Shown: positions 36,264 to 37,758 of the stretch, piece after piece
Numbering within the stretch: position 1 is the stretch's first letter
Layout of the letters: every line of letters starts with the position of its first letter
Virus record (IMG/VR): IMGVR_UViG_3300030390_001259
Coordinates: 1-37,861 of that record
DNA from: a virus
Reading direction: 5' to 3' (one strand)
Length of the DNA stretch: 37,861 bases
Notes under the pieces: model-generated
Database searches by the model: none
Told to the model about the DNA's origin: nothing
Seen by the model: only the letters and a program-made list of their open reading frames with translations
Position numbers and translations under genes: made by a program

Positions 36264-36446
36264 ATGAGTGAGTTACACGAGCGATTTACATTGGATGAAG
36301 GCTGCGATCATTTTCCTGTATTAAGGTTTATGCTGGACGGTAAAGAAATAACGTATAAAGATTTGGTTAAAATATCTAACCAGTTAGCTAATGCATTATT
36401 AGATGCCGGTATGGTATTTAAACTTGAACAAGGAGTAAACAAGTAA
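36264..36446 (+). CDS. Hypothetical early protein, 60 aa
   Basis: AAGGAG Shine-Dalgarno overlaps the preceding stop. The sequence (FPVLRFMLDGKEITYKDLVKISNQLANALLDAG) suggests a strand pair followed by an amphipathic helix. Family not recognised. Its last codons contain the promoter for the structured RNA (36424-36452). Confidence 0.65.
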   Translation: MSELHERFTLDEGCDHFPVLRFMLDGKEITYKDLVKISNQLANALLDAGMVFKLEQGVNK

Positions 36447-36452
36447 TATAAT
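36424..36452 (+). promoter_or_regulatory. Promoter of the structured RNA
   Basis: -35 TTGAAC (36424-36429), 17-bp spacer, -10 TATAAT (36447-36452), predicted start near 36459. It lies at the end of gene 36264..36446 and faces the non-coding stretch. Confidence 0.65.
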
Positions 36453-36458
36453 AATTAT

Positions 36459-36598
36459 GCAGTCGTGAGAAGCTGCTTTGTAAATAGGTATAGTAACAGG
36501 GTTATGTGTTTAAGGTCTTAGTATTTCGTGGGATAAACTTCTCACAAGTACTATACCTACCCCGAGTTACTAGGGCTTTAAACATATAGCCTTTTTTT
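36459..36598 (+). ncRNA. Candidate structured RNA, about 140 nt
   Basis: Predicted 5' end forms hairpin GCAG/CTGC (36459-36462 with 36473-36476). Its loop contains GTGAGAAG (36465-36472). A long hairpin follows: 36498-36523 pairs with 36568-36593 over 26 uninterrupted pairs (six G-U), then 36525-36528 with 36563-36566 and 36530-36531 with 36560-36561. The 28-nt apical loop holds CTTCTCAC (36538-36545), complementary to the 5' loop, and TACTATACCTA (36549-36559), complementary to TAGGTATAGTA (36485-36495). Seven T residues (36592-36598) overlap the stem end, as in an intrinsic terminator. No matching known family is claimed. Confidence 0.7.
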
Positions 36599-37090
36599 GT
36601 GTCTGAATGTATCCGCAGAAGCCTTATAGGTGGAGGGTAAACTTTAATAATTGAGCTTAGGCGTTGAAGTTAGTTAAAGTAGACACAAACCCTTTCAAAG
36701 CTTCTTATCTCTGCCGAATTCTATCGGTTATCGTAAAAAACCTAAGTGCTAGCTAAGCCTAAAAATAAGCAAACTAAGCAAAAGATTATCAATACAGCAT
36801 CAGCTTATTAACGAAAGTGAAGTAGGCAAAGTTTATCAGAGGCTCATTATTTTATAATGCTGGTAAGTGGATTTAGACCCGATGCTTGTAAACCTACGTC
36901 ATTAAGGGTTTGCAATAAACAGGAAATTTAAGCGTACGATTTTATATCCAAGTTCACACCTTGTTAAAAGTGTTCCTGATAAGTGTTTTGATAAGATTGA
37001 ATGATAATAAGTATTTAAATAAAGAACCTTAAGTAATGCCTATCGGGCTTTTAGGGGTCTAAATGATAATATTGCCTAACGGATAATCAA
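36599..37090 (+). other. Non-coding stretch of about 490 bp with further complementary segments
   Basis: No ORF with a ribosome site was seen. TTTGTGTCT (36596-36604) pairs with AGACACAAA (36681-36689), and ACTTTAAT (36641-36648) with GTTAAAGT (36673-36680, one wobble); these two stems abut on the 3' side and could stack. Others: CCGA/TCGG (36714-36727), AATAAGC/GCTTATT (36764-36770, 36803-36809), CATTAT/ATAATG (36845-36859) and GTTT/AAAC (36908-36920). TGATAAG is repeated at 36978 and 36989. It may extend the RNA above or be an origin or control region. Confidence 0.4.
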
Positions 37091-37519
37091 ATGAATTATA
37101 GTGTTTATTTTATATATTGCGGTGATCAACAAAACTCTCCTGTGAAAATAGGTGTTACAAGCGATATTGACAATAGGATTTCAAATCTTCAGACGGGTAA
37201 TCCTTATGTTTTAGTATGCAAGGCTTTGATACCTTGTTCTGATAAAGAGCAGGCTTACAAATTAGAATCTTATCTCCATAATAGATTTAAAAAGAAACGT
37301 ATGAATGGCGAATGGTTCAGGCTTTATGGTTTTAATATGAAGTCTATTCTTAATGATTTCAGTTCTAAACAAACCAAGCCGCTGCCTAAGCAAGGGTTTA
37401 ATGTTTTAAAGAAAGCAACCAGTAAGATAAGCAGGCTAGAGAGGGAGAATAAAGCGCTAAAATTAAAAGTTGAAAATCTAGAGCGTGACATTGAGGAGTA
37501 TTTAGATATCCATGAATAA
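37091..37519 (+). CDS. GIY-YIG-like (Mug113/T5orf172 type) nuclease-domain protein, 142 aa
   Basis: The GIY-YIG variant is seen as VYFIY (5-9), VKIGVT (18-23), Arg29, LQTGNP (33-38), Glu59 with His63, and GEWF (73-76), matching the Mug113/T5orf172 subgroup. Residues 103-140 form a coiled coil (ISRLERENKALKLKVENLERD), probably for dimerisation. Phage proteins of this kind are free-standing and mostly uncharacterised; some are homing endonucleases. It follows the long non-coding region. The ATG has only a weak Shine-Dalgarno. Confidence 0.8.
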   Translation: MNYSVYFIYCGDQQNSPVKIGVTSDIDNRISNLQTGNPYVLVCKALIPCSDKEQAYKLESYLHNRFKKKRMNGEWFRLYGFNMKSILNDFSSKQTKPLPKQGFNVLKKATSKISRLERENKALKLKVENLERDIEEYLDIHE

Positions 37520-37556
37520 CGTATCTAATGAACACTATTATTTAAAATAAACCAAA

Positions 37557-37578
37557 TAAACAAAGAGAGATTATAAGA
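37557..37578 (+). repeat. Leader repeat, copy 1
   Basis: 22 bp (TAAACAAAGAGAGATTATAAGA) differ at one base from 37737-37758. Here it supplies the Shine-Dalgarno (AAGAGAG) of gene 37578..37739. Confidence 0.85.
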
Positions 37579-37739
37579 TGAAAGAATTCAAATTTAAGGT
37601 CGGTGACGAAGTGTTTGATGATACACAAGACGACCAGCTTGAGATAGTTGGTTGTTATAGGGATTTCGGTGTGAACTGCTACGAGTGCAAAATGCGTACA
37701 GGTTTAGTCGTTTATAGAAAAGAAAGCGAGTTAATTTAA
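37578..37739 (+). CDS. Hypothetical early protein, 53 aa
   Basis: A 54-codon ORF with leader AAGAGAG. The product begins MKEFKFKVGDEVFDD, like small SH3/KOW-type barrels, and contains CYECKMRTGLVVYR with two cysteines. Family not recognised. It is followed by a second copy of its leader (37737-37758) that has no gene. Confidence 0.6.
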   Translation: MKEFKFKVGDEVFDDTQDDQLEIVGCYRDFGVNCYECKMRTGLVVYRKESELI

Positions 37740-37758
37740 ACAAAGAGGGATTATAAGA
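37737..37758 (+). repeat. Leader repeat, copy 2 (orphan)
   Basis: A 21-of-22 match to 37557-37578. The position of the ATG in the first copy reads ACT here and no ORF starts, so it is a leftover ribosome-site cassette, probably from gene loss or duplication. Confidence 0.8.

What the first reader, a model, noticed from the sequence alone, without database searches (positions are those of the whole stretch)
36424..36598. Promoter-driven RNA with loop-loop and strand-loop complementarity
Seen: a promoter (TTGAAC-17-TATAAT) points at a transcript starting near 36459. Its 5' hairpin loop (GTGAGAAG) is an 8-nt perfect complement of CTTCTCAC in the apical loop of a long hairpin (498-531/560-593 of this block, about 30 pairs). 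The same loop also carries an 11-nt perfect complement (TACTATACCTA) of the strand between the two hairpins (TAGGTATAGTA). Six G-U pairs in the continuous stem suggest selection on RNA rather than a DNA palindrome. Inference: the 11-bp pairing cannot easily reach across the stem in cis, so it may be an alternative early fold that delays the long stem, a transcription switch with the U-tract as terminator, or a contact between RNA molecules.
Basis: partly seen in the sequence, partly recalled or inferred. Interest (0 to 1): 0.85.

Follow-up and report, generated by a model that had tools for sequence, protein, structure and literature searches.

The report
New modular giant phage noncoding RNA
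The flagged hairpins are the 5' end of a roughly 600-nucleotide noncoding RNA that recurs, rebuilt from changing parts and sometimes carrying tRNAs, in about 40 copies across marine phages; its matching loop and strand sequences change in step in a way that suggests copies of the RNA dock onto each other.

Summary
It is not chance. I found about 40 copies of the element in marine phage contigs, two MAG contigs and cultured Vibrio breoganii and Pseudoalteromonas phages. A:A', B:B' and P2 are all kept while their sequences change (class 1 B:B': 14 members, 14 different helices, 98% paired; 0 of 5000 partner permutations match). The flagged 175 nt are only the 5' domain. The RNA continues past the U-tract through a helix P3, a variable linker (real tRNA genes in some relatives), a short hairpin and a pseudoknotted 3' domain, about 625 nt in the window. 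No Rfam family matches, GOLLD and ROOL included. Since B abuts the base of a stiff ~30-bp P2 and B' sits at its tip, pairing within one molecule with P2 closed is strained or impossible; I favour head-to-tail contacts between copies, as shown for GOLLD and ROOL bridges. The family is well supported; oligomerisation is inferred; function is untested. The terminator-switch reading is weakened but not excluded.

The parts
36424..36452 (+). Promoter: -35 TTGAAC, 17-nt spacer, -10 TATAAT
   Evidence: Read directly; TATAAT-like box close upstream of P1 in most members.
36459..36476 (+). P1 hairpin; expected transcript start near 36459
   Evidence: Fold; P1 present in the class 1 and class 2 members.
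36465..36472 (+). Segment A (P1 loop, GTGAGAAG), complement of A'
   Evidence: 8/8 Watson-Crick with 36538-36545; covaries across members.
36485..36495 (+). Segment B (TAGGTATAGTA), joining strand, 2 nt from P2
   Evidence: 11/11 Watson-Crick with 36549-36559; 14 different helices in 14 class 1 members.
36498..36592 (+). P2, long hairpin, 33 bp enclosing the apical loop
   Evidence: class 1 lower 18 bp 97.5% paired with 35 both-side changes.
36538..36545 (+). Segment A' (CTTCTCAC) in the P2 apical loop
36549..36559 (+). Segment B' (TACTATACCTA) in the P2 apical loop, 0 nt from the P2 3' strand
36592..36598 (+). U-tract after P2; its last three U's pair in P3
   Evidence: P3 pairing.
36596..36689 (+). 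P3: TTTGTGTCTG (36596-36605) with TAGACACAAA (36680-36689); in relatives this slot can hold a tRNA or tRNA-like domain
   Evidence: tRNA-Trp in the same slot in Vibrio phage 1.085.O.
36690..36704 (+). Conserved motif CCCTTTCAAAGCTTC after P3
   Evidence: recovers further members as a search pattern.
36711..36742 (+). Conserved hairpin and A-tract CTGCCGAATTCTATCGG..GTAAAAAACC
   Evidence: 63 nt identical in L009.
36823..37078 (+). Divergent 3' domain: closing helix b ATTTAGACCC (36871-36880) with GGGTCTAAAT (37055-37064); crossing helix GTTTATCAG (36831-36839) with CTGATAAGT (36976-36984)
   Evidence: resembles the 3' domains of L096, L097 and L099 by eye; the R1 model matches only weakly (E 0.12).
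37091..37519 (+). GIY-YIG-like ORF (MUG113/T5orf172) abutting the RNA; associated, probably not part of it
   Evidence: Pfam MUG113 3.1e-16, T5orf172 1.1e-9.
37510..37553 (+). Remnant of the 3' end of a second RNA copy, overlapping the ORF's end
   Evidence: Same CATGA...ACGTATCTAATGA block as L048 and L049; R1 hit 37475-37533 at E 0.0076.

Best explanation
The feature is the 5' domain of a previously uncatalogued family of large (about 500-750 nt), modular, independently promoted noncoding RNAs of marine tailed phages. Shown by covariation: P1, P2, P3, the A:A' and B:B' contacts, and a pseudoknotted 3' domain. Inferred: A and B of one molecule pair with A' and B' at the tip of P2 of another copy. 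B runs directly into the base of its own P2 and B' runs directly into the top of its own P2, so an intermolecular B:B' duplex would stack coaxially between the P2 of one copy and the P2 of the next, giving a head-to-tail ring, cage or rod. The variable linker, which in several relatives holds complete tRNAs, would be displayed or held by that assembly, as proposed for GOLLD. Function in infection is not tested.
For: About 40 copies with shared modular order. Own-partner complementarity far above permuted partners. P2 covaries at the same time. 3' domain: 93.6% of cells paired versus 79.9% in shuffles, 14 pairs with both-side changes, 0/500 shuffles on every measure, crossing helices included. 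B lies 0-4 nt from P2's base and B' behind 26-33 bp; a simple bound excludes cis reach in 22 of 23 members if P2 is closed and straight. B' is 0-1 nt from P2's top strand in 8 of 9 class 1 members. Two genomes carry two copies with different A/B codes, as self-recognition would predict. Loop:joining-strand pairs found by covariation in GOLLD and ROOL proved intermolecular (PMC12286853). tRNAs sit in the linker.
Against: No biochemical, RNA-seq or structural data. Complementarity alone does not separate trans from cis. The reach bound is crude: opening about 5 bp at the A/U- and G-U-rich base of P2, or a bend (class 2 has a 2x9 internal loop), could allow cis pairing. Different codes in two-copy genomes could arise by drift. 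The window's 3' domain is divergent and barely matches the model.
Confidence: 0.6

Rival explanations
1. Same RNA family, but A:A' and B:B' form within one molecule as a pseudoknotted fold, with P2 bent or partly open at its base; the RNA works as a monomer.
For: Covariation is equally compatible. A' and B' are nested in one class and crossed in the other, so topology is flexible. The class 2 internal loop could act as a hinge.
Against: Linkers of 0-4 nt against 26-33 bp of P2; class 1 members have no or only small interior loops, so no obvious hinge; the P2 base is itself conserved and covarying.
Confidence: 0.25
2. A co-transcriptional switch: A:A' and B:B' form first, delay P2, and decide between stopping at the U-tract (a ~140-nt RNA) and reading through to the long RNA.
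For: P2 plus U-tract looks like an intrinsic terminator; the U-tract is kept in most members; A and B are transcribed before P2 is complete.
Against: A' and B' lie in the loop, not the stem, of the putative terminator, so they do not compete base for base with P2; P2 is much more stable (about -42 kcal/mol against -10 and -13 for the duplexes); the U-tract is shortened or interrupted in some members (L065, L057); conserved structure lies downstream.
Confidence: 0.12
3. An ordinary terminator or DNA palindrome with chance complementarities.
For: A hairpin followed by U's.
Against: Compensatory changes and permutation tests; independent promoters; conserved downstream modules.
Confidence: 0.01

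Closest known systems
GOLLD RNA (Rfam RF02032)
   Same: Phage/prophage RNA of several hundred nt, variable and conserved halves, tRNAs sometimes in the linker, covarying loop:joining-strand pair that was shown to be intermolecular (PMC12286853).
   Different: No match of its covariance model to 8 member records at E<=10; different helices; the conserved domain here is a ~170-nt pseudoknotted unit.
ROOL RNA (Rfam RF03087)
   Same: Phage/prophage RNA of about 600 nt, linked to tRNA islands; J6/8:L8 intermolecular pairing detected by covariation (PMC12286853).
   Different: No match of its model (that search had no positive control); different architecture.
OLE RNA
   Same: Large RNA that dimerises through loop contacts between coaxial helices (PMC12286853).
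   Different: Not phage-borne; no Rfam match here.
phi29 packaging RNA
   Same: Phage RNA assembled by loop-loop contacts between copies (own knowledge; also cited in PMC12286853).
   Different: Much shorter; no Rfam match here; the window phage has P22-like terminase and portal genes.
Intrinsic terminator/attenuator
   Same: Hairpin followed by U-tract.
   Different: Followed by conserved, covarying structure and, in relatives, tRNAs; loop contacts.

Membership tests
GOLLD (RF02032) | Match to the family's covariance model | tested here: not met
   0 of 8 member records at E<=10; no hit in whole-Rfam scans of the window and relatives.
GOLLD (RF02032) | Closed RNA-only multimer | not testable with these tools
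   Needs cryo-EM or mass photometry.
ROOL (RF03087) | Match to the family's covariance model | tested here: not met
   0 of 8 at E<=10 (nothing rang in its controls, so weak alone) plus whole-Rfam scans without a hit.
Giant phage RNA with tRNA-bearing linker (the kind, not a family) | Phage-borne, several hundred nt, extensive covarying structure, tRNAs embedded in a variable linker | tested here: met
   rare in bacterial genomes: 1 of 395 of an order and 1 of 297 of a family, the same MAG.
Giant phage RNA with tRNA-bearing linker (the kind, not a family) | Homo-oligomerisation through loop/joining-strand bridges | tested here: inconclusive
   Covarying bridges present and cis reach unfavourable, but no physical test.
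tRNA | tRNA model match in the window copy | tested here: not met
   No tRNA in the window; only relatives carry them.
Intrinsic terminator/attenuator | Transcript ends at the U-tract | not tested
   No transcript data; conserved downstream helices argue for read-through.

The most novel reading that the evidence does not exclude
A further natural family of phage RNA, unrelated in sequence to GOLLD and ROOL, that self-assembles head to tail through two covarying contacts, with P2 stems and B:B' duplexes forming continuous coaxial rods or a closed cage, and that carries tRNAs in its linker; paralogous copies in one phage use different contact codes so that each assembles only with itself.
Probability: 0.45. 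Interest if true: 0.92.

Novelty: new variant of a known kind. Interest (0 to 1): 0.82.

Why it matters
Only a few natural RNAs are known to build RNA-only assemblies, and the role of the phage ones is unknown. A further family with tRNAs in the linker, present in cultured Vibrio and Pseudoalteromonas phages, would show that this is a recurrent phage strategy and would give hosts in which to test it. The in-step change of the contact sequences, and paralogues with different codes in one genome, make the oligomer hypothesis directly testable by swapping codes.

Tried and rejected
Rfam scans at gathering and permissive thresholds: only tRNAs in relatives and chance hits. GOLLD and ROOL models on member records: none. 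blastn of the window region in phages and plasmids: none; blastn of L075 in phages: none. Protein query of the neighbouring 60-aa ORF: no relatives. A first all-against-all complementarity score over loosely defined regions separated own from other partners only modestly because related members and G-U pairs inflate it; it was replaced by landmark-defined windows. Genome hits L074 and L076 rejected as chance (pattern only, no other module). Retron and group I intron readings were considered because of the long hairpin and the GIY-YIG ORF: no Rfam match, and no reverse transcriptase among the ORFs searched (not every ORF was searched). Searches of the held papers found no earlier description; subscription papers are mostly not covered.

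Full report
WHAT THE WINDOW IS. A 37,861-base IMG/VR virus record with P22-like portal, terminase, scaffold and head proteins and lambda-like replication and recombination genes. The finding lies between a run of small + strand ORFs and a GIY-YIG-like ORF (37091-37519; MUG113 3.1e-16). The 640 bases between them hold no ORF over 30 aa that starts and ends there.

CHECK OF THE OBSERVATION. Every element is present at the stated position. The 142-nt 5' part folds with z = -5.45. A:A' is 8/8 and B:B' 11/11 Watson-Crick; the isolated duplexes are worth -10.1 and -13.1 kcal/mol.

RELATIVES. blastn of the window region against the phage and plasmid collections found nothing, but loci fetched through the replication protein held relatives. 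L008 is 90% identical over 147 nt; L015 and L009 share the plan with other sequences. Exact pattern scans with conserved blocks of the RNA brought in more, read out. Blastn with the L058 copy hit 13 phage records: Vibrio breoganii phages and Pseudoalteromonas phages HS2 and BS5. My count is about 40 copies in about 38 records, near-identical records counted once; some are partial. The 3' domain model R1 found a second copy in two genomes.

ARCHITECTURE. (i) Promoter-like boxes: TATAAT or a near match close upstream of P1 in most members. (ii) 5' domain. Class 1 (the window type) has A' then B' in the P2 loop; class 2 has B' in a small hairpin at the tip of P2 and A' after it; a shorter class 3 and L066 keep A:A'. 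(iii) P3, which takes up the last U's of the U-tract: TTGTGTCTG/CAGACACAA, TTGTGCCTG/CAGGCGCAA, TTGTGCGT/ACGCGCAA and so on, followed by CCCTTTCAAAGC. In Vibrio phage 1.085.O a tRNA-Trp stands in this slot, followed by tRNA-Arg. tRNAs also lie in the linker of L050 (Gly), L065 (two by Rfam), L066 (Gln) and L069 (Arg), and Rfam matches a tRNA in the P3 slot of L062; other members show tRNA-like pieces such as GGTTCGATTCC (by eye). (iv) CTGCC..GG..GTAAAAA hairpin and A-tract. (v) 3' domain: helices a and b cross, so the fold is pseudoknotted. On 16 aligned members 93.6% of cells pair (shuffles 79.9%), 14 pairs have changes on both sides (7.4), and the covariation score is 0.373 (0.131; 0/500 shuffles reach it); sliding the partner by 1-3 columns gives 30-45% paired. 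A further helix c (CATGG/CCATG, GCAAGG/CCTTGC, GACGGGG/TTCCCTGTC in different members) crosses helix e and was seen by inspection, not in the formal count. The window carries a divergent 3' domain with its own perfect 10-bp closing helix and a crossing helix, similar by eye to L096, L097 and L099.

COVARIATION OF THE CONTACTS. With windows set by landmarks rather than by complementarity, own partners beat permuted partners in both classes (class 1 A 6/20000; class 1 B, class 2 A and class 2 B 0/20000). These permutations do not correct for shared ancestry. Class 1, 14 members: A:A' 100% paired, 4 distinct helices, 11 both-side changed cells; B:B' 98.1% paired, 14 distinct helices, 51 both-side changed cells (permuted: mean 64%, maximum 83%). 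In one search the segments were written out by hand from the sequences, so register choices lean towards pairing; one search does not have that weakness. P2 also covaries (class 1 lower 18 bp 97.5% paired, 35 both-side changes, permuted maximum 95%; class 2 94.2% against a maximum of 94.2%, so weaker).

CIS OR TRANS. In 23 members B ends 0-4 nt before P2 and B' lies behind 26-33 bp (mean 30). The bound is crude, and fraying of P2's base or a bend could relax it. In class 1 B' also joins P2's top strand with 0-1 nt in 8 of 9. An intermolecular B:B' is therefore flanked without slack by the base of one P2 and the top of another, which suggests coaxial head-to-tail stacking. This step is inference. 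Precedent: in GOLLD (L20 with J13/15) and ROOL (J6/8 with L8) covarying loop:joining-strand pairs were shown by cryo-EM to be intermolecular (PMC12286853; [quoted passage not shown] Two genomes carry two copies each with different A/B codes (L048 and L068; L075 and L093), which self-recognition predicts but drift could also give.

KNOWN OR NEW. No Rfam 15 family other than tRNA is matched at its cut-off in the window or the relatives scanned, nor in permissive scans (where remaining hits lie below the families' cut-offs); GOLLD and ROOL models do not match member records. The held papers gave no earlier description. R1 found the RNA in 1 of 395 genomes of an order and 1 of 297 of a family, the same MAG, so it appears largely confined to phages. 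I file it as a new family of the known kind 'large ornate phage RNA', without claiming membership in GOLLD or ROOL.

VERDICT. The family and its contacts are well supported (about 0.95). Intermolecular use of the contacts is my preferred reading (about 0.55-0.6). A role in holding or displaying linker tRNAs is a hypothesis by analogy.

Noticed in passing
window 37091-37553: A GIY-YIG-like ORF lies between the RNA's 3' domain and a remnant of the 3' end of another RNA copy, which overlaps the ORF's end; L061 also has such a reading frame just upstream of a 5'-truncated copy (by eye, possibly with a stop). Homing endonucleases may target or move this RNA gene.
   Followed up: partly
L048/L068 (one contig) and L075/L093 (one contig): Two phage or MAG contigs carry two copies of the RNA with different A/B contact sequences.
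   Followed up: partly
L062, L069, L078 (P3 slot): P3 can be the acceptor stem of a tRNA or tRNA-like domain, which suggests the linker grows by capture and decay of tRNA genes.
   Followed up: partly
window 36592-36598 and 36735-36740, and relatives: The conserved U-tract after P2 could pair with the conserved A-tract GTAAAAAA downstream in several members; a possible long-range helix or triplex, untested.
   Followed up: no
window 37557-37578 and 37737-37758: A 22-nt direct repeat (95% identical), TAAACAAAGAGRGATTATAAGA, possibly shared leader sequences of small ORFs.
   Followed up: no
L050, L053; L096, L097, L099, L100; L101: The 3' domain exists in several subtypes not matched by the R1 model, so R1 searches undercount the family.
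   Followed up: partly
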